From Amphibalanus amphitrite (taxonomy: Eukaryota > Arthropoda > Thecostraca > Balanomorpha > Balanidae), in the NCBI RefSeq assembly GCF_019059575.1, contig NW_024883118.1:1-64000 (forward strand): a stretch of 64,000 bases of DNA, written 5' to 3'. The translations under genes and the position numbers were made by a program. The notes under the pieces are model-generated. The model did no database searches. It saw only the letters and a list, made by a program, of their open reading frames with translations, and was not told the origin of the DNA. This document shows, piece after piece, positions 5,241 to 49,872 of this stretch. Position 1 is the first letter of the stretch. Each line of letters opens with the position of its first letter.

Positions 5241-6682
5241 TGTTTTCGGTATTCCAAGACCCTGAGGTCGTCAGCGAATGGTGTTGGTCCGGCGGACACC
5301 AATGCAGTTCCTCAGAATTAATTCACTTTCTAAAATATCCTGCTCAGAGACGTCCAAAGAGCATTTAAATCAGACTTTGAACGGCCGTGGAAGTAGTGAA
5401 TCAAATCATCCCTCATTGGGCATTGATATTTGACCATGGATTTAGAATGCCGAAAAGGGTTCTGGTTCAAACAGATATGCTTCAAATTTGAAAAAAAAAA
5501 ACACCAAATAGGTACGAGTATGATTACAAACGTTGCTTCTGATTAGCGTTAACCATTCATTACCTTCTAAGCCAAGATCACCATTCGTAGTTCGAAAATC
5601 GCAAGCAATTTATTCTAACAAGCGATACCGGTGTCTCCAACTGCCTATTCATTATTCCAGTGTCGCATTTCACAGCAATTTGACCCCCTCGGGCAATGTG
5701 GTCTGTCCCTCCACGCATAGCACATTCGCCTGTATGTCATCGTGAGCGCTGTGTGTATGTGTGTCTGCATCTGAGAGTGGATGTCCTGCACGCCACCACT
5801 ACCGATGAATTATGGCTGTTTACGAATCGAGAGCAGCGAATCGACCCAGCTTCCTCACAAGCAGATTCCCAGAAGCAAAAAACACGAATGTGATCGGGAC
5901 ACCAATAAGCCAGCAAGCACAAACGATTGTTGGGCTGAAGCTGGAAAATGGCGTTCGCTAAGAAATTAGGACCAGCTTCGGTTATATCATACTCGTATAT
6001 GCCTTCTTCGTTGGAATACTTTGGAACAGTTAGTAGTGGAAGTAAGAAGCTGTTTAAATGTGAAAGGTTTAGAAGGAGAGCTTCCTAAAATGGAATTTCA
6101 GATTTTCTCATTTAAAACCACAGTCTAAGAACCTAAGAAAGAACGGATTTAAAGTACAACCGCCTTTGATGCACGTGCCTTCATATTGCCTCAAATATAT
6201 CCGAACATTTCTCCCACGGCTTTTCACACAATTTTTTCCAAACCTATATTTCCAGCGATCAAAACGCGTGAACAGTAATTTAGGCACTTTAGCTACGTTC
6301 TTTCTTAGGTTTGTAAGACTACAGTCGGAAAATGGTGCTTGGCTTGTTTCTGCACTGCTTTGACGATACTTCGCACGTAAAAATAATGTATGTAAGATAG
6401 CCAATCGGCTTCGAGAACTGATACGCCTATGAAATCTTCAAAGCTTTTTGGCAAGTCGCGGCTGATTGCCTTGTGCCCTTTTAATAAAATTTTCAATAAT
6501 AGTACAGTGATTCACTACAGAATGACTTCAAATTGATCTTTTTAAATTTATCTCACATATTGCATTAAAATGTGCTCTGATGTCAAAACGTCTTATTTGT
6601 TATTTGTTTTTCAAATAATACGCTGTGCTGACTATATATGTGGTAAAACTAAAGAGTAATTAATATTTCGTACGAATTTGCC
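5241..6682. other. Non-coding stretch, nothing recognised
   Basis: Mostly AT-rich single-copy-looking sequence. I found no repeat structure, splice-bounded exon or RNA gene that I could support. Confidence 0.35.
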
Positions 6683-7038
6683 GGTCCCGTAGCTCAGTTG
6701 GTAGAGCGTTGGACTCCGCGTGGTGAGAGCACGCGTTCCCGGTTACAACAGTCCGGGTTCGAAGCGCGACGGGCGCTTGACATTTATGGGCCTCCTGACA
6801 GGTATGGTTGCGGTTGGTGGCAGGCCGTAGCCAGGCGAAGTCAGTGAGGGGACCGGCCGTGCGCGGCTATGTGCGCACGTTAAACTTTGGACTCTAAATT
6901 CTGCCATAGAACTGGGATTGCGCGATCGGAGGGTAGAGGGCAGGGTCACCGCAACAAGCTTCGCTTAGCGGTGGCTCTGTCCTTGTGAATCCTTCCCATC
7001 ATAAGGTTCGGACTAAATTTATAAAAAAAAAATAAAGT
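6683..7038 (+). mobile_element. tRNA-derived SINE with A-rich tail
   Basis: The head holds an A-box-like word (tagctcagttggtagagc, about 6690-6707) and a B-box-like word (gggttcgaagc, about 6755-6765), the two internal RNA polymerase III promoter elements of tRNA genes. The acceptor stem pairs only partly and the T-arm does not fold, so it is not a working tRNA. A tRNA-unrelated body of about 250 bp follows, and the unit ends in an A-rich tail at about 7020-7038. Head, body and A-rich tail in that order are diagnostic of a SINE moved by LINE machinery. No clean target duplication was seen. Confidence 0.75.
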
Positions 7039-42182: not shown

Positions 42183-42235
42183 CTGCGGATACAGATCGTA
42201 GAGTGATTGAACATTGTTGGATGACGAATGGGATA

Positions 42236-42457
42236 TGTTATGGGGGCAGACCCGTACCTGTTAGGCCCGCATACTGGCCACTCTGTGACGTCACCGCCTG
42301 GGGCGACCGACCGGCCGCTGACCGGCGGTCGGGTCGCGGCGCCGGGCGGGCGTCAGTCTGCGGCGGGGCGCCGAGCGAGGAACAATACAGACTGGAGTGC
42401 ACCACGACTGTGTAGTGCACGGAGGACGAGGAGGAACGGGTGCGTGTGGCCGTAACA
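42236..42457 (+). repeat. 5' LTR of the Gypsy element
   Basis: 222 bp, TG...CA ends with the 5-bp inverted tip TGTTA/TAACA. It contains a CRE-like TGACGTCA near 42,287 that could act in the promoter. No AATAAA is evident. Confidence 0.95.
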
Positions 42458-42460
42458 TTT

Positions 42461-42478
42461 TGGCGCGGTCGGTAGGAC
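42461..42478 (+). other. Putative primer-binding site
   Basis: tggcgcggtcggtaggac begins 3 bp after the 5' LTR with the TGG expected opposite the CCA end of a tRNA. The primer tRNA is not identified. Confidence 0.6.
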
Positions 42479-42748
42479 ACGAACCTACGCTCCCATTGTA
42501 TGATATTTGATATGTTGAAATGCATATGAGCGGCATGCTCCAGGAACGTGACTGAATATTTCATATTTTTCTGGATATTTTACCGAGCATAATTTTCTGG
42601 ATATAAAACAACTATACCATTTACAGTTGAGTATTTATTTATTTGAGTATTTAGAGAGCATTCATATTTATTTAGATCAATTGAAATATTCAAAAATACT
42701 TACGATACATTTTTTGTTTATTGAGCGGAGAGCTCACCGTCCTCAAGT

Positions 42749-43747
42749 ATGGATCCCAAGCTGCTATTCCTCACCCGGGCAAGGAAATTCTCTGGCAAAG
42801 GTGGGGAAAACTGGGACACTTGGATATCCCATTTTGAGGCTCAAACTCCCACCTTTGATGATGAGGGTCGCCTTCAGTGTCTTTTGAGTCTACTTGAGGA
42901 TGATGCCTTGGATGCCATGCTAGCCCTGCCCGTGGGGGTCAAGGTCAAATATGCTACTGTGAAAGCGGCACTTGACGGTAGGTTCGGCAGGAAGGTCGAT
43001 CGGCTCCAGGCGCATGCTGAACTCAGTCGCGCAGTACAGGAGCCCGGTGAGTCGGTGGAAACATTTGGTGACCGGATTAGGAAGCTAGGAAGGCTAGCCT
43101 ATCCAGATGCCAGCGACGGCGACAGAGCGGTGGAAAGCTCTCTCACCAGCCGTTTCATATGTGGGCTGCAGGACGAATGGACCCAGAGCAAAGTTTGCAG
43201 TCGTAACCCTGAGACACTAATGGAGGCAATCCAATTAGTGCAGACCCTACGCAGCCGCCAGGAGGCATTCCAGGCGGTGCGCGCGACAACAGCAGCTGCT
43301 CTGTCTGCCACATCGGGAACCAGCCGTGGTCCCGGGGGAGGTGACATGGGCAGCAACGATCGTGTTCGCGCTCTGGAGCATCAAATCGACGAAATTGGTC
43401 GCACTCTGCGAGCACTCACAGCAACGGATCGCCAGGCGGGGTCACGGCAACCAGCCAACGAGGGAAGCAGGTGCTACAACTGCGGCATGCCCGGCCACTT
43501 CCGAAGGAGATGTCCCGCCCTGAGGCAACACACACCGGACGACAACAACCAGCGAAGACAACCAGCGGGGGTCCCCCAGGGTAACGTGCAGGGCGCTGAA
43601 CCTCCCGTGCCGCCGTTCTGCATGTGCTGTGGACGTCAGGGACACTGGATGGCGGAATGCCAGCATCTGCCACATGGTAATGCAGGAAGGCAGCACGGCG
43701 GCAACGGCCTCCGGAATGGACCTCGTGGTCCGCAGGCGGAAAACTAA
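42749..43747 (+). CDS. gag: Gypsy Gag polyprotein
   Basis: 332 residues. The capsid-like part (about 20-180) has the helical retrotransposon-Gag pattern (WDTWISHFE near 22; ETFGDRIRKLGRLAYP near 104). A linker of about 60 residues follows. Two CX2CX4HX4C zinc knuckles are at 242-255 (CYNCGMPGHFRRRC) and 291-304 (CMCCGRQGHWMAEC), expected to bind element RNA. The tail is Gly/Asn-rich. Start chosen at the first ATG of the frame, 291 bp after the LTR. The TAA stop at 43,745 overlaps the pol ATG by one base (TAATG), so Pol is probably made by reinitiation and not by frameshifting. Confidence 0.93.
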   Translation: MDPKLLFLTRARKFSGKGGENWDTWISHFEAQTPTFDDEGRLQCLLSLLEDDALDAMLALPVGVKVKYATVKAALDGRFGRKVDRLQAHAELSRAVQEPGESVETFGDRIRKLGRLAYPDASDGDRAVESSLTSRFICGLQDEWTQSKVCSRNPETLMEAIQLVQTLRSRQEAFQAVRATTAAALSATSGTSRGPGGGDMGSNDRVRALEHQIDEIGRTLRALTATDRQAGSRQPANEGSRCYNCGMPGHFRRRCPALRQHTPDDNNQRRQPAGVPQGNVQGAEPPVPPFCMCCGRQGHWMAECQHLPHGNAGRQHGGNGLRNGPRGPQAEN

Positions 43748-46700
43748 TGGTAGCTGGGACCGAGGGACAGGTGCCAGCTGCAAGAGACAACAAGTCCCAA
43801 ATAACAGCTGCGGCAGTAGAAGTCACTCTGGGAACCAGGCGCGTGTGGGCACTCGTCGACACCGGCGCAGACTTCTCGATGGTCCGCGACGGGCTGCAGG
43901 GAGAAATTCAGAGGGATCTGAAGTGTGAGATGTTCCCACCTGCTCGGAGCGCACGCGGGGCCGGTGGGGAGCCGCTCCGTATCGCTGGCGTTCTGAGGGA
44001 GGTACCTTTAAAGGTAAAAGGGGCACTACTCACCTGCCCCAGCCTGGCCGTCGTCGGTGGGCTGGTCTATGACCTGGTCCTGGGGAGAGATTTCTGCTGC
44101 CGGTACGGCACCGTGATCGATGACCAGAGCGGCTCGCTCAAGTTGGCGGGGATGACCATTCCGTTGCCCACATATAACGACATTCGCCCAAGTCGAGCCC
44201 GAGTCCTGCTATGTGCAACGGCGGTAGTCCCCCCGCGGTCGGCGTGCGTCGTGACAGCCAAGATAGTGCCGGTTGATGGAGCCATCGCGGAACATCATTT
44301 GGCTCCGTTTCAGGGAATCATCGAGCCGAGCGGCAGCTCTGAACGGGAGGAAGTCCTGATCCCGAGAGAGCTGGTGGAGGTCAACGCGGGCGACTTGGTA
44401 CCAGTCACGCTGACGAACACCGGATCGCTTGAGGCTCGGCTCCTGGAAGGAACAGATGTTGGGACGTTTTTCGCACTAAACGAAGGACGAGAAGACAACA
44501 TGTACGAGCTGTGTCCCACTGGTGAAGGCCAGTGCGACACAAATGTTGCTGTGGTGCGAGGTGAGGGTGCAACAGTAGCAAGCGGTGGCGCACTGGACGT
44601 CCCCGGACTCGATGTGGATGCCTCAGATCTCAACCCAGCGGGAAAAGAGAAACTTCGCTCACTCATCTCTGAATACCGGGACATCTTCAGTCGTCACTCA
44701 GGTGACATTGGGAGGACGCATCTGGTGGAGCACCGGATCGACACGGGCGACTCGGCTCCGATTCGACAGCGTCCTCGTCGTGTTCCTGTCAAGCTAAGGA
44801 GTGTCGTTGAAGAGCAGAAGCAACAAATGCTGAAGGACGGGATAATCGAGGAGAGCGACAGCCCCTGGTGCTCGCCGGTCGTGTTGGCTCGCAAGAAGGA
44901 CGGCAGTTTTCGGTTTTGCGTGGACATGAGGGCGGTGAATGGAGCAACGCGAGGCCTGGCTCATCCTCTGCCTCGTGTCGATGATGCGCTCGATTCCCTG
45001 TCCGGTGCTCGGTGGTATACCACGCTGGACATGGCGACAGGGTACTGGCAAGTGGGTCTGGCCGAGGAAGATCGTGAGAAGACTGCATTCACGACCGGGA
45101 AAGGTCTCCACCAGTTCAGAGTCATGGCGATGGGCCTGAAAAACGCGAGCGGGACGTTCCAGAGGCTCATGGAATTGGTCTTGGCTGGACTAGACACTAA
45201 AAACTGCCTAGTATACCTGGACGATATCATTCTGTTCAACAGGACCGAGGACGAGCACATCGCGACGCTGAGGGAGGTCTTCCAAAGGATCAGAGCCGCC
45301 GGCTTAAAACTCAAGCCACAAAAATGCCGACTCGCGAAACGGGAGGTGTCGTTCCTCGGGCACATGGTATCGGAACAAGGCATCCGACCAGACACTCGTA
45401 ACGTCGAGAAAGTCTCCGGCTGGCCCGAACCGTCGACGGAAGATGAGATGAGGAGCTTCCTCGGGCTGACTGGATACTACTCACGCTTCATTCAGGACTA
45501 TGCAGAGATCAGCAGTCCGCTGCGGAATGCCCAGGCAGAAAACGCAGATGGGAAGCTGAAGTGGACCGATGAAATGCGGGACGCTTTCCGTCGGCTGAAG
45601 AGCATCCTGGCGTCGCCACCCATCTTGTGCCTGCCCACCTTCAAGGGCTTCTTCATACTCTACACGGATGCATGCAATACCTCCGTAGGGGCAGTCCTCG
45701 CAGAACGCATCGGCGAAGAGGAACGAGTGATTGCCTACGAGAGCAAGGTCCTGTCCAAACAACAGAAGCGATGGCCCACGTATGACAAGGAGCTTTGGGC
45801 TATTGTTCACGCGATCCGGCGGTTCAGGCAGTACACAATGGGGTCCAAGTTCGAGGTGGTCACGGACCATAAGCCGCTGGCAAACATACCCCAGTCGATC
45901 GCAGTCGAAAGAGACGGAACTGGTCGACGTGGGCGGTGGGCCATCGAGCTGAGTTCGTTTGAGTTCAATGTTATCATACGTAAGGGCTCAGATCACTCCA
46001 ACGCCGATGCACTGTCCAGGCGGCCTGAGCTCGTGAACCCTGTAACCGCATCGGGAAAAGGGGTAACCGAGACGAGCTCTGGGCACCAAGCACAGGGGAC
46101 GCGCGGAGTGGAAGGCCAGCCGGGCGGGACGCCCGATAGCCGACCGGGGAAGCAAGATGCGAGCGGTACGCTCGACTCAACTCTGACGGTCCACTCTGGC
46201 GGCGAGAACCCGAAGCTGCGCGAGGCACAAGATCGTGATGCTGTACTGAAGGACGTTCGAAGATGGTGTGAAGATCGGGCACTCCCAGAGTCGGCTGAAC
46301 TCGGGGAGTGGAAGATGGTTAGAAGCCTTTGGGACAACGTCGAGGTGCGACAGGGAATAGTAGGCATCTGTGACAACAAGCAGTTCCGGGCATTGGTCCC
46401 ATCCGAGGCAAGAGGCGAAGTCATGGCGTTCGCTCACGGACACTACACAAGCGGGCACATGGGACGGACGCGCACCTCGCTACGACTGAAATCTCACTTC
46501 ATCTGGCCAGGGATGTACAGGGATGTGAAGAATTACTGCGAGGAATGCATCCTCTGCCAGCGGAGGCGCCGCCCGAACCCAAAGAAACGAGCACCGATGG
46601 TCACGGAAGTCATGTCCAGGCCATTTGAGAGGATCGCCATCGACATCACGGAGATGCCGCACTCATTGAAGGGCAACAAGTGCGCACTCGTCATCATGGA

Positions 46701-47148
46701 CTACTTCACCAAGTTTGTCCGTATCTATCCCATGCCTGATCAAAAAACCGAGACAGTCCTGGAGGCACTCCTAGATTGGGTGTATGATCTGGGGGTACCC
46801 GAGCGTCTCCACTCCGATCAAGGGAGACAATTTGAATCGGACCTATTTCAGATGATGTGTAGGAAACTTGGGATACACAAGACGCGAACCACGCCCTACC
46901 ACCCCGAGAGTGATGGCATGGTCGAGAGGTTTAATCGGACGTTGAAGGATATGGTGGCCAAGTATGTCAGCGGGGGAGGCCCGCAGTGGGATGTGAATGT
47001 GAAGGCCTATTCTATGGCATATAACTCCTCCGTCCACAGCGCAACGGGCTTCTCCCCGTTCTTCCTGGTGCCGGTTTTGAGCCGCGCATGCCGCTGGAAG
47101 CTACATATGTTCCCCCAAGGGAGCTGGTGCCTGCAGAGACGTTCGTAA
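43747..47148 (+). CDS. pol: Gypsy Pol polyprotein (protease-RT-RNase H-integrase), broken near its end
   Basis: 1133 residues as read. Aspartic protease with VDTGA at 37-41. Reverse transcriptase about 330-540, with FCVDMR near 390-395 and the catalytic YLDD at 490-493. RNase H has Asp641, Glu682, Asp707 and Asp754. Integrase has an H899-x4-H904 ... C934-x2-C937 zinc site, then Asp966, Asp1024 and Glu1060 (spacing D-35-E, as in active enzymes). All these catalytic residues are present. From about residue 1108 the frame is wrong: the expected integrase C-terminal sequence continues in another frame at about 47,075 and this frame soon meets a TAA at 47,146. No -1 slippery heptamer is evident there. 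It is either a small deletion or a sequence error. RT-RNase H-IN order marks Ty3/Gypsy. Confidence 0.93.
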   Translation: MVAGTEGQVPAARDNKSQITAAAVEVTLGTRRVWALVDTGADFSMVRDGLQGEIQRDLKCEMFPPARSARGAGGEPLRIAGVLREVPLKVKGALLTCPSLAVVGGLVYDLVLGRDFCCRYGTVIDDQSGSLKLAGMTIPLPTYNDIRPSRARVLLCATAVVPPRSACVVTAKIVPVDGAIAEHHLAPFQGIIEPSGSSEREEVLIPRELVEVNAGDLVPVTLTNTGSLEARLLEGTDVGTFFALNEGREDNMYELCPTGEGQCDTNVAVVRGEGATVASGGALDVPGLDVDASDLNPAGKEKLRSLISEYRDIFSRHSGDIGRTHLVEHRIDTGDSAPIRQRPRRVPVKLRSVVEEQKQQMLKDGIIEESDSPWCSPVVLARKKDGSFRFCVDMRAVNGATRGLAHPLPRVDDALDSLSGARWYTTLDMATGYWQVGLAEEDREKTAFTTGKGLHQFRVMAMGLKNASGTFQRLMELVLAGLDTKNCLVYLDDIILFNRTEDEHIATLREVFQRIRAAGLKLKPQKCRLAKREVSFLGHMVSEQGIRPDTRNVEKVSGWPEPSTEDEMRSFLGLTGYYSRFIQDYAEISSPLRNAQAENADGKLKWTDEMRDAFRRLKSILASPPILCLPTFKGFFILYTDACNTSVGAVLAERIGEEERVIAYESKVLSKQQKRWPTYDKELWAIVHAIRRFRQYTMGSKFEVVTDHKPLANIPQSIAVERDGTGRRGRWAIELSSFEFNVIIRKGSDHSNADALSRRPELVNPVTASGKGVTETSSGHQAQGTRGVEGQPGGTPDSRPGKQDASGTLDSTLTVHSGGENPKLREAQDRDAVLKDVRRWCEDRALPESAELGEWKMVRSLWDNVEVRQGIVGICDNKQFRALVPSEARGEVMAFAHGHYTSGHMGRTRTSLRLKSHFIWPGMYRDVKNYCEECILCQRRRRPNPKKRAPMVTEVMSRPFERIAIDITEMPHSLKGNKCALVIMDYFTKFVRIYPMPDQKTETVLEALLDWVYDLGVPERLHSDQGRQFESDLFQMMCRKLGIHKTRTTPYHPESDGMVERFNRTLKDMVAKYVSGGGPQWDVNVKAYSMAYNSSVHSATGFSPFFLVPVLSRACRWKLHMFPQGSWCLQRRS

Positions 47149-47723
47149 CGGATCGGCTGAAGGCAATCCACGACGCCCACCATCTCGCTCGTGTCGAGAC
47201 TGAGCGAGCGGGGAGGGAGTCGGTAAAGCGTCACAGCCGGCGAGAGAACGAGACCAGGTATCGGGCTGGTGACCGTGTTTGGGTTCGCGACCACAGAGCA
47301 GCAGTTGGCGGTAAGCCAAAACTTGGTCTCCCGTACGCTGGTCCCGCGACGATCACGGATAAGGTAGGTAAGGTAACCTACCGTGTACAGGACCACACCG
47401 GTCGTATACGGGTGGTGCACCACAATCACCTGAAACCAGTGGTGGAGTCGACCAGGTACGGGGGTGGCGCCGCCCCAAGGGTCCCGCCCCGACGACCCAA
47501 CTCCGATCCCGACCCACCCAGATCCCGAACGAGGTGTCCCGAGATGATCCCCGAACAGGAGCGCGCCGGGTACACTCCACAGCGCGACACTGAGGAAGTG
47601 ACAGAGGGGCTTTCTGGGGAAGAAATAGCCCGCTTACTCATACTTACTAAGTCAGCCAAACCACCCTCGCGACCATATGTCACTAGGTCCGGGCGAGTCT
47701 CACGCCCTCCAATCCGTCTTTAA
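47075..47723 (+). pseudogene. Integrase C-terminal region in a shifted frame
   Basis: This frame (first internal ATG at 47,088) holds the end of integrase, cut off from pol by the frame break just upstream. It has the segment YRAGDRVWVRDH near residue 63 of the ATG-started frame, then a GPY/F-type module (LPYAGPATITDKVGKVTYRV) that helps bind DNA and target. The Pro/Arg-rich tail ends YVTRSGRVSRPPIRL, a common ending of Gypsy Pol. No chromodomain is seen. By itself it has no catalytic core. If the frame break is a sequence error, this is simply the end of pol. Confidence 0.8.
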
Positions 47724-47750
47724 TCAGACACATGGCGATTGGCCCCATGT

Positions 47751-49088
47751 ATGGCGAGGACGTTGTCTGACAGCGATCCAATTTCAGAGATGGAGCGTGA
47801 GCTGAGCCGACTCCGATCGTGCTTGGAGGCAGAGAGGGAGGAGCGAAAGAAGGAGGTGGCGGCACTATGGCGCGCCGTCAAGAGACTGTCGCTCGGGCAG
47901 AGCGTGGTCCTCCCGAGGGGCGCCGACGCCATCGATGTCACCGCGCCTGATGTTAACGAGGAGCTGTTCCCCGACCAGAGGGACGACCAGCCCGACGCGG
48001 ACAACATCCTCCAACAAATACTTGAGGGTGAGATCGACCCACCAGACTTCAGTGGGATGGTGGCGGCTGACGAGATCGACCCACCAGACTTCAGTGGGAT
48101 GGTGGCGGCTGACGATAGCCTGGAGGTCTCATGGCCGCCGATGAACATCCCGGGTAAGGCCGGGCCCCTACCGACTGGTAACGACGATGGTCTCGATGGC
48201 GGTGTGCCCCAGGCCGAGGGCGGTGCGCCCCAGGCCGTGGGTGGTACTCCTGGTGCGCCGGGCGGTGCGCCCCAGGCCGAGGGCGGTATGCCCCAGGCCG
48301 GAGGCGGCGCTCCCGGCGCGTCCCGGACCGTGGGCGGAGCGCCTCAGGCGCAGTCGACGACGCGACCGACTCTCGGCGCCGTGACGAGCGTGAGGCACCG
48401 GGCTGCGTGCGGTGGAGCGGCAACCGGCCCACCCGACCCACCAGTGGCAGGGGTCAAGAGCGTCCTACTGGTGGGCGATTCGATGGTGTACCACGGCCGG
48501 TTTCGGACCAGGGACCCTTCGTGGTCCCTCGAGACCTGGGCTGTGTCCGGCGGAACCTGGGCCGAAATGGGCTGGTACCTTCAGGCTCGAGTGAACGCCT
48601 GGACCCGGTCCGCGGCGGCGATGGGGCACACGCCCACGGCCGTCGTGATCTGGCTCGGAGGGAACGACGCCTACCCGAGGAACCCGCCGGTCTCGGAGGG
48701 ACTCTCCCAAAACCTGGAGGGTCGCATCGAGCGTATGGTGGCGTCCTTGCGCGCGCAGTACGAGGTCTACATCGTGGGACCCACCCCGCGACCCCGCGTC
48801 GACGGACAGAGCGTGTGGGAGGACACGCAGGCCTGGAAGCTGGAACGGCACTTCGCCGAAATGCTGCGAGAACAGGGCGACGTATCGTCAGGGCGGAAGC
48901 TCGGTAAGCTGGTGGCGGTGGGCCGTCGTCTGTGCACCAGGCAGAGGGGGGCAGTCATGCATCAGGGTAAGCCCCGAGATGTGTATCGGGTGGACAAGGG
49001 GATGTTCAGAACTGACGGCGTGCACCTCACCGAGGATGGCTACCGCCGGGTCAGCGACAGGCTGCCGTGGTGGCTGCAGTGCGGGTAG
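47751..49088 (+). CDS. Third retrotransposon ORF: coiled coil, Gly/Pro repeats, SGNH/GDSL hydrolase domain
   Basis: 445 residues from the first ATG of the frame, 27 bases after the pol-frame stop. Residues 11-48 form a likely coiled coil (MERELSRLRSCLEAEREERK). Residues 94-121 are an exact tandem duplication of EIDPPDFSGMVAAD. Residues about 150-205 are GG(A/V)PQAEGG repeats. Residues 236-445 fit the SGNH-hydrolase fold: VGDSMV with Ser244 (block I), SGGTW Gly268 (block II), GGND with Asn305 (block III), TDGVH with Asp422 and His425 (block V). So all four SGNH positions are present, and it could be an active esterase. No signal peptide or membrane segment is seen, which argues against an envelope protein. 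SGNH/esterase domains are known in ORF1 of some CR1-like LINEs; I do not know them as a standard part of Gypsy elements. Confidence 0.85.
   Translation: MARTLSDSDPISEMERELSRLRSCLEAEREERKKEVAALWRAVKRLSLGQSVVLPRGADAIDVTAPDVNEELFPDQRDDQPDADNILQQILEGEIDPPDFSGMVAADEIDPPDFSGMVAADDSLEVSWPPMNIPGKAGPLPTGNDDGLDGGVPQAEGGAPQAVGGTPGAPGGAPQAEGGMPQAGGGAPGASRTVGGAPQAQSTTRPTLGAVTSVRHRAACGGAATGPPDPPVAGVKSVLLVGDSMVYHGRFRTRDPSWSLETWAVSGGTWAEMGWYLQARVNAWTRSAAAMGHTPTAVVIWLGGNDAYPRNPPVSEGLSQNLEGRIERMVASLRAQYEVYIVGPTPRPRVDGQSVWEDTQAWKLERHFAEMLREQGDVSSGRKLGKLVAVGRRLCTRQRGAVMHQGKPRDVYRVDKGMFRTDGVHLTEDGYRRVSDRLPWWLQCG
48030..48113 (+). repeat. Exact 42-bp tandem duplication in ORF3
   Basis: The 42-bp unit beginning gagatcgacccaccagactt occurs at 48,030-48,071 and again at 48,072-48,113 without a visible difference, giving a 14-residue in-frame duplication. 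Since it keeps the frame, the ORF stays intact. Confidence 0.93.
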
Positions 49089-49428
49089 GCGTGCGGCATC
49101 GTCGGGTCAACGCGTCGCGAGCGATGCGGTGCCCTGATGGGAGCGGTGCGACGGAGTCACGGCGGTCGCGATCGGTGTTGCTCTGTTGTCGCTGAGGCGC
49201 CGCGAGTGTGTGGTGTTATGTTGGGATTCTGTTGTAGTCGCGGTGCCGAAGTTTGGTAATCGTGTCGCTGATGTGTCTCGAGCGGGTGGTGTTTTGTGTT
49301 AAGACTCTGTGATGTTCGTGTTGCCGAAGTCTGGCATTGGCGGCGCAACCTGCAGGGTGTGCCTGTACGTGATGCGCCGTTGTTGTGTTGAGTTGTAGCC
49401 ATTTTCTGTGAAGGTCGCGTTTTCATTT
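49089..49428 (+). other. Non-coding 3' region of the retrotransposon
   Basis: About 340 bp between the ORF3 stop and the polypurine tract. GTG/TTG-rich; no frame or domain recognised. Confidence 0.6.
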
Positions 49429-49440
49429 AGGGGGGAGGAG
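49429..49440 (+). other. Polypurine tract
   Basis: aggggggaggag lies directly before the 3' LTR, where plus-strand DNA synthesis is primed in LTR retrotransposons. Confidence 0.85.
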
Positions 49441-49662
49441 TGTTATGGGGGCAGACCCGTACCTGTTAGGCCCGCATACTGGCCACTCTGTGACGTCACC
49501 GCCTGGGGCGACCGACCGGCCGCTGACCGGCGGTCGGGTCGCGGCGCCGGGCGGGCGTCAGTCTGCGGCGGGGCGCCGAGCGAGGAACAATACAGACTGG
49601 AGTGCACCACGACTGTGTAGTGCACGGAGGACGAGGAGGAACGGGTGCGTGTGGCCGTAACA
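49441..49662 (+). repeat. 3' LTR of the Gypsy element
   Basis: 222 bp; reads the same as the 5' LTR throughout as far as I can see. Followed by the GATA target duplication. Confidence 0.95.
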
Positions 49663-49872
49663 GATACCAAGCGCCGAATGCACTTGAAGGTATTTGAGCA
49701 GAGGAGGCAATAATTGATAACTCAACATCAGTGCAGCCAGACTTCTGATTACAAAACTTAAAAATCAATAAAGCATACACACCAAAAGTGGCAATCGCTG
49801 GGAGAGAAAAATGAAGAAGCTGTAAACAAAAGGTGAAAATATTTCAACGAAACCTATTCCAAGCACACTCAC

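What the first reader, a model, noticed from the sequence alone, without database searches (positions are those of the whole stretch)
47751..49088. SGNH/GDSL hydrolase encoded by a third ORF of a Gypsy retrotransposon
Seen: an intact 445-codon frame between pol and the polypurine tract, with GDS (Ser244), Gly268, GGND (Asn305) and DGVH (Asp422/His425) in the order and spacing of an SGNH hydrolase, behind a coiled coil and a Gly/Pro repeat linker. Known: Gypsy elements usually carry gag and pol, sometimes an env-like ORF; esterase domains occur in ORF1 of some CR1-like LINEs. Inference: a captured or convergently acquired esterase with a role in the retrotransposon life cycle. No signal peptide or membrane segment, so it is not a normal envelope. 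The intact catalytic set in a young copy suggests it is kept by selection.
Basis: partly seen in the sequence, partly recalled or inferred. Interest (0 to 1): 0.8.

Follow-up and report, generated by a model that had tools for sequence, protein, structure and literature searches.

The report
Esterase gene in barnacle Gypsy retrotransposons
A group of barnacle retrotransposons carries its own esterase-like enzyme as a third gene, and in one branch that gene sits on a separate small element that shares its ends, and probably its particles, with a partner that lacks the gene.

Summary
The ORF at 47751-49088 lies between pol and the 3' LTR of a Ty3/Gypsy element with identical 222-nt LTRs and a 4-bp target duplication, and is an SGNH hydrolase by profile, motifs and predicted fold. 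It is not a one-off: eight families in this barnacle genome (window included), from two distant pol lineages, show gag-pol-ORF3 inside an LTR pair. Ser and Asn are invariant in 15 of 15 aligned proteins (14 families), and dN/dS is 0.17-0.51 in the 11 of 13 pairs with enough changes. A GDSL ORF3 in LTR elements is already in print for bdelloid rotifers (PMC5408684). The window copy's pol is frame-broken and its LTR has only six matches in the genome.

The new part lies outside the window: a gag-pol element without ORF3 (at least 37 pol copies) and a 2.8-kb LTR-ORF3-LTR element (19 copies read) share LTR, primer site and polypurine tract, and LTR segments are swapped between them both ways, which points to shared particles. 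Whether ORF3 helps the partner or only hitch-hikes is open. Best reading: an accessory, membrane-acting esterase, dispensable in cis.

The parts
42232..42235 (.). target-site duplication GATA (other copy 49663-49666)
42236..42457 (+). 5' LTR, 222 nt, TG...CA
   Evidence: identical to 49441-49662
42461..42478 (+). primer-binding site TGGCGCGGTCGGTAGGAC; its first ten bases recur in most ORF3 families, the helper and the satellite
   Evidence: which tRNA not determined
42749..43747 (+). gag (zinc knuckle)
   Evidence: PF00098 E 7e-5
43747..47148 (+). pol: protease, RT, RNase H, integrase; reading frame breaks in the integrase C-terminal part
47088..47723 (+). integrase C-terminal part in a different frame
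   Evidence: PF22938 E 2.8e-9; relatives keep it in the pol frame
47751..49088 (+). ORF3, 445 aa
47778..47891 (+). N-terminal helix, residues 10-47 (coiled-coil-like by eye)
   Evidence: AF2 block pLDDT 77, 77, 69, then 52
48006..48050 (+). short motif ILQQILEGEIDPPDF in the acidic disordered part
   Evidence: pattern in 11 of 14 families against a shuffle mean of 0.94; pattern chosen after seeing the alignment
48198..48341 (+). Gly/Pro-rich repeat linker
48441..49085 (+). SGNH hydrolase domain, residues 231-445; basic (pI about 9.8)
48480..48482 (+). catalytic Ser244 (GDS)
   Evidence: 15 of 15 in A1
48663..48665 (+). Asn305 (GGND)
   Evidence: 15 of 15 in A1
49014..49025 (+). Asp422 and His425 (DGVH)
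   Evidence: 14 of 15 in A1; L026 is the exception
49429..49440 (+). polypurine tract
49441..49662 (+). 3' LTR

Best explanation
ORF3 is a long-held accessory gene of Gypsy elements in this barnacle: a basic SGNH esterase domain behind an acidic, mostly disordered arm, which in about half the families (7 of 14, judged by eye) begins with a coiled-coil-like helix. Shown: gene order, predicted fold, kept catalytic residues, constraint between families, and one lineage in which ORF3 sits on its own LTR element that shares LTRs with a gag-pol-only partner. Inferred: the protein acts on lipids at membranes, as the LINE ORF1p esterase ZfL2-1 does in vitro, and so helps particle or RNP assembly, transport or exit; it is not needed in cis for amplification inside the genome and can be supplied in trans; the ORF3-only element is copied by the partner's Gag-Pol in shared particles.
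For: Window plus 8 of 20 fetched stretches show gag-pol-ORF3 inside an LTR pair (gag of L022 and L028 only as a zinc-knuckle ORF). Catalytic residues kept. dN/dS of the domain: 0.17-0.51 in 11 of 13 pairs; bootstrap ranges for four of them below 1: L018-L019 0.31 (0.20-0.42), L009-L010 0.19 (0.08-0.37), window-L009 0.38 (0.26-0.56), L015-L023 0.29 (0.15-0.46). The profile of ORF3s finds ZfL2-1 ORF1p (4c1b) as best PDB sequence match, E 1e-4 and 7e-5, next 0.046 and 0.009. Domain basic in 14 of 14 families, N-terminal part acidic in 13 of 14. Satellite: 19 of 20 fetched loci are LTR-ORF3-LTR, 13 with a perfect 4-bp duplication. Helper L048 has gag and pol, about 110 nt between the pol stop and the LTR, and no ORF3. 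LTR typing: satellites carry LTR type A or B, the helpers checked carry B, one helper (L053) has a helper-type first half and a satellite-type second half. Helper pol is sister to L023 pol 100/100, satellite ORF3 is sister to L023 ORF3 99/96.
Against: The most numerous pol family in the scored list has no ORF3 match downstream (0 of 37), so ORF3 is not required in cis. The satellite's gag remnant has dS 1.07 and omega 0.23 (0.08-0.52) against helper gag, so its gag-pol loss may be recent and its intact ORF3 may only reflect youth; its polymorphisms (9 synonymous, 14 nonsynonymous) do not show selection. Two close pairs give no sign of constraint (L020-L021: 1 synonymous, 2 nonsynonymous; L015-L016 domain: 0 and 3). 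Many of the other pairs have dS above 1, so their omega is rough. pol is more constrained than ORF3 where both can be compared (0.07 against 0.29, L018-L019). Rodriguez et al. report variation of ORF3 within bdelloid families as mostly neutral. L025 has no Pfam hit at E 0.01; L026 has lost the Asp/His motif. No activity, expression or lipid binding was measured.
Confidence: 0.45

Rival explanations
1. ORF3 stands in for Env: it serves spread between cells or hosts, not copying within a genome. Loss of ORF3 frees a lineage to amplify inside the genome (the 37-copy helper), and the ORF3-only element is a plain hitch-hiker.
For: Constraint is visible between families but not within them; the ORF3-less family is the most numerous in the scored list; Rodriguez et al. 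discuss an Env-like role and the 'superspreader' idea for env loss; Drosophila LTR elements can use another non-Env protein, sORF2, for cell-to-cell transfer (abstract).
Against: No transmembrane-like stretch in the window ORF3 and no evident route to a particle surface (no signal-peptide predictor run). Rodriguez et al. say that copy numbers in bdelloids do not fit the superspreader idea. Transfer between species was not tested.
Confidence: 0.3
2. ORF3 works as a scaffold (RNA binding, nuclear export or Gag partner) and the esterase fold is used for binding, not catalysis.
For: A recurrent motif and an acidic arm outside the enzyme; Cer1 encodes a third protein needed for export of its RNA (title and start of abstract in the listing); a non-catalytic SGNH protein exists, Oskar (passage).
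Against: Ser and Asn invariant in 15 of 15 and Asp/His kept in 14 of 15 proteins that otherwise share few residues (mean column identity 30%).
Confidence: 0.15
3. A passenger gene without a role, intact only because copies are young.
For: Variation within families is compatible with neutrality; satellite gag-pol loss may be recent.
Against: Bootstrap ranges of dN/dS below 1 in four pairs and catalytic residues kept across two pol lineages.
Confidence: 0.05

Closest known systems
Vesta1-type LTR retrotransposons of bdelloid rotifers (Rodriguez et al. 2017, PMC5408684)
   Same: third ORF downstream of pol encoding a GDSL/SGNH hydrolase with intact residues
   Different: the authors say their GDSL ORFs lack coiled coils; here several families have an N-terminal coiled-coil-like helix and an acidic arm with a recurrent motif, and one lineage has ORF3 on a separate element. 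Direct kinship not tested (no Vesta sequence at hand).
TelKA2n (same paper)
   Different: the third ORF here is an esterase, and the gag-pol partner found here itself lacks ORF3
ORF1p esterase of CR1/L2 LINEs, ZfL2-1 (Schneider et al. 2013, PMC3905857; PDB 4c1b)
   Same: coiled coil plus SGNH esterase; best PDB match by sequence profile
   Different: first ORF of a LINE, not third ORF of an LTR element; common origin not shown; not among the 50 best fold rows
BARE1/BARE2 of barley (PMC3735527)
   Same: an LTR element that cannot make Gag is packaged in the particles of a related one
   Different: here the two elements hold complementary genes, and the small one keeps an accessory gene that the large one lacks

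Membership tests
SGNH/GDSL hydrolase | block I GDS Ser, block III Asn, block V Asp-x-x-His | tested here: met
   S244, N305, D422, H425; PF13472 above cut-off
SGNH/GDSL hydrolase | SGNH-type alpha/beta fold | tested here: met
SGNH/GDSL hydrolase | ester hydrolysis | not testable with these tools
   needs an assay
Ty3/Gypsy LTR retrotransposon | LTR pair, primer-binding site, polypurine tract, short target duplication | tested here: met
Ty3/Gypsy LTR retrotransposon | pol order protease-RT-RNase H-integrase | tested here: met
   (the protease models score below or at their cut-offs)
GDSL-ORF3 LTR elements (Vesta1-like) | GDSL ORF between pol and 3' LTR | tested here: met
GDSL-ORF3 LTR elements (Vesta1-like) | clusters with Vesta1 ORF3 | not tested
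   no Vesta sequence fetched
LINE CR1/L2 ORF1p esterase | sequence kinship closer than to cellular SGNH proteins | tested here: inconclusive
   4c1b best by profile, not listed among the 50 fold rows
retroviral or errantiviral envelope | transmembrane segment | tested here: not met
   19-residue hydropathy maximum 0.95 in the window ORF3; hydropathy only, no predictor
helper/satellite LTR pair (BARE1/BARE2-like) | satellite lacks gag-pol and shares LTR and primer site with an element that has them | tested here: met
   (only gag remnants in the satellite)
helper/satellite LTR pair (BARE1/BARE2-like) | satellite RNA packaged in helper particles | not testable with these tools
   indirect only: LTR segments swapped both ways

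The most novel reading that the evidence does not exclude
The barnacle holds a two-part LTR retrotransposon: gag-pol on one element and the esterase ORF3 on another, co-packaged, each supplying what the other lacks, like a multipartite virus inside a genome.
Probability: 0.27. Interest if true: 0.85.

Novelty: new variant of a known kind. Interest (0 to 1): 0.62.

Why it matters
It extends the GDSL third ORF from bdelloid rotifers to a crustacean, shows that the gene persists across distant Gypsy lineages, and offers a natural comparison to ask what the enzyme is for: related families with ORF3, a numerous family without it, and an element that carries ORF3 alone. If ORF3 works in trans, this would be a retroelement with its genes divided over two elements.

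Tried and rejected
Rejected: chance ORF (conserved across families). Rejected: an antisense ORF in L015; the gag-pol in that stretch lies outside the LTR pair that holds ORF3. Rejected: L010 as an example of pol plus ORF3; its gag-pol element ends before the ORF3 piece. Not counted as further ORF3-only elements: L017 (no primer-site match), L024 (only match several kb away) and L026 (a ten-base match about 190 nt from its LTR-like repeat, inside the ORF). Rejected: the satellite as a recent deletion product of today's helper, because its gag remnant is at dS about 1. A hint that L025's ORF3 and pol have different histories gave no supported conflict. 4c1b is not among the 50 fold rows; that excludes nothing. 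Searches outside the genome gave only barnacle-named or unnamed proteins, each with about 8000 candidates scored, so the spread in other animals is open. Print: searches listed no crustacean GDSL ORF3 and no two-part LTR element; most subscription journals are not held. The pol census joins two capped lists (61 of 5197 and 95 of 1546 candidates scored), so a missing ORF3 in single families (C322, C1772, C87, C387, and 2 of 13 of the 1444-codon family) may be a limit of the lists. Rows left out of alignment A1: fragments and near copies (L002, L003, L005, L010, L012, L016, L017, L020, L024).

Full report
What is in the window. The window belongs to a genome of 807.6 Mb in 2644 contigs. The named protein matches are gene models of the barnacle Amphibalanus amphitrite; one of them (P0003) is 94% identical to the window ORF3 in alignment A2, so the source is that species or a close one. 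The element runs from 42236 to 49662: two identical 222-nt LTRs, a 4-bp GATA duplication, a primer site at 42461, gag, pol, ORF3 and a polypurine tract. The pol frame changes near 47.07-47.15 kb, in the integrase C-terminal part. In the ten relatives in which both pieces matched (L005, L009, L013, L018, L019, L020, L021, L023, L025, L048) these lie 18 or 21 nt apart in one frame. The window LTR has six matches in the genome, two of them in the window (6 of 6 candidates scored).

ORF3 is widespread in this genome. The window protein finds 95 matches (95 of 1546 candidates scored). Of 20 ten-kb stretches fetched around relatives, eight hold an LTR pair with pol and ORF3 and a gag or zinc-knuckle ORF (L009, L013, L018, L019, L020, L021, L022, L028; L020 and L021 are one family), two (L023, L025) hold pol and ORF3 without a detected LTR pair, two (L015, L016) hold ORF3 alone between LTRs, and eight are fragments or unclear. 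With the window that makes eight families in the complete order. In the alignment of 15 proteins, two of them from the window's family, S244 and N305 are invariant and Asp422/His425 fail only in L026. L022 and L028 have pol only 34-37% identical to the window's and form a separate pol clade, so the gene spans two distant lineages.

Selection. NG86 dN/dS of the ORF3 domain was computed for 13 pairs. In 11 it is 0.17-0.51; the other two pairs have three changes each, mostly nonsynonymous. Most of the 11 have dS above 1, so the values are rough. Bootstrap ranges: L018-L019 0.31 (0.20-0.42), L009-L010 0.19 (0.08-0.37), window-L009 0.38 (0.26-0.56), L015-L023 0.29 (0.15-0.46). For L018-L019, pol gives 0.07 against 0.29 for ORF3. 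Within the window family the estimates say nothing: W-L003 0.77 (0.30-1.96), W-L005 ORF3 N-terminal part 0.47 (0.18-1.27), W-L005 integrase part 0.41 (0.13-1.75). ORF3 is therefore constrained in the long run, less than pol.

A motif outside the enzyme. The pattern [ILV]L..[ILV][LVM] (ILQQIL in the window) occurs in the N-terminal part of 11 of 14 families, against a mean of 0.94 and a maximum of 6 in 5000 shuffles. I chose the pattern after reading the alignment, so this overstates its significance. The N-terminal part is acidic in 13 of 14 and the domain basic in 14 of 14 families.

The ORF3-only element. The group of near-identical matches with 422-codon frames was fetched as small stretches. 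With L015, L016 and L030, 19 of 20 loci are LTR-ORF3-LTR elements of about 2.8 kb or less (L046 is not). Of the 19, 13 have a perfect 4-bp duplication, three (L033, L037, L043) do not, and three (L030, L038, L044) cannot be read at one end. 17 of 19 keep a long frame (16 of 422 codons, L016 of 394); L045 and L047 are internally deleted. 18 of 19 hold the ten-base primer-site core; L041 has lost it in a deletion. Among 16 ORFs, 9 synonymous and 14 nonsynonymous changes and no stop were found, which does not show selection. The leader holds two short gag remnants, one with a zinc knuckle.

The gag-pol partner. The satellites' LTR type B also occurs as pairs 5734-5735 bp apart: 14 pairs on 13 contigs, 40 of 134 candidates scored; a few other spacings (1901 to 5414 bp) and the satellites' own also occur. 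One copy (L048) has identical 257-nt LTRs, gag, pol and about 110 nt from the pol stop to the LTR: no ORF3. The 3' ends of two more copies (L049, L050) agree, and all three have 4-bp duplications. A pol search lists 37 copies at 65% identity to the window pol with nearly equal scores, 35 with a 1351-codon open frame; that all are L048-like is inferred from score and, for 13 contigs and C107, from LTR spacing. None of the 37 has an ORF3 match within 6 kb downstream, whereas 6 of 6 copies of the 1369-codon family and 11 of 13 of the 1444-codon family do.

Signs that the two share particles. LTR types A and B differ at 46 sites. Satellites have A or B (L037 and L043 one of each), while leader, ORF3 and 3' part show no fixed difference between 9 A and 7 B copies. 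Three helpers checked (L048, L049, L050) are B. The fourth (L053, contig C107) has a helper pol end (99.6% to L048), helper type at the first seven diagnostic sites and satellite type A after them; the last site reads B, as it does in most type-A copies. Such a joint is what strong-stop transfer between two RNAs in one particle would leave; that is inference from retroviral reverse transcription (recalled). No LTR pair at the spacing of a full gag-pol-ORF3 element was seen in the scored lists (40 of 134 and 40 of 103).

History. Helper pol is sister to L023 pol (100/100) and satellite ORF3 is sister to L023 ORF3 (99/96). But the satellite's gag remnant differs from helper gag at dS 1.07 with omega 0.23 (56 codons, 0.08-0.52). 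So satellite and helper come from old sister lineages; the satellite probably lost gag-pol later and shares its LTR by exchange. Its intact ORF3 may simply be young.

Reading. A membrane-acting, accessory esterase that is useful in the long run and not needed in cis for amplification fits these facts; an Env-like role in spread fits nearly as well. A two-part system with mutual help is possible (about 0.27) but rests on structure and LTR exchange alone.

Compared with what is known. Rodriguez et al. 2017 (abstract, passages and section 3.6 read) describe GDSL ORF3s in bdelloid Vesta elements, discuss membrane and Env-like roles, and mention TelKA2n, a non-autonomous family with an env-like ORF. 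BARE2 is packaged in BARE1 particles (abstract). The third-ORF esterase is known in kind; the barnacle clade, its N-terminal architecture and the complementary pair did not appear in the searches named under Tried and rejected.

Noticed in passing
L005 (C1409): A window-family copy lacks the stretch that encodes most of the SGNH domain (window element nt 6181-6924) but keeps the N-terminal part and an LTR.
   Followed up: partly
L002 and L003: Two loci join the window-type ORF3 enzyme domain and LTR to a different, mutually similar upstream sequence.
   Followed up: no
P0004, P0018 (A. amphitrite gene models): ORF3 pieces are annotated inside a DDX51 model or together with a gag domain; possibly annotation errors.
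   Followed up: no
P0005: An unnamed protein joins an ORF3 piece to a PF14529 domain (LINE-type endonuclease, name recalled).
   Followed up: no
L027:5895-8635: Inverted pair of about 1.3 kb, 99.4% alike, with ORF3 copies; the first block of the longer copy reads GCS instead of GDS.
   Followed up: no
L037 and L043: ORF3-only copies with a type-B 5' LTR and a type-A 3' LTR and no target duplication; recombination between insertions or an assembly join.
   Followed up: partly
window 42461-42489: Primer-binding site within a longer stretch that resembles the 3' part of a tRNA (serine type by recall).
   Followed up: no
L010:379-6492: A separate Gypsy element with identical 317-nt LTRs and pol only 27% identical to the window's, next to an ORF3 fragment.
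   Followed up: no
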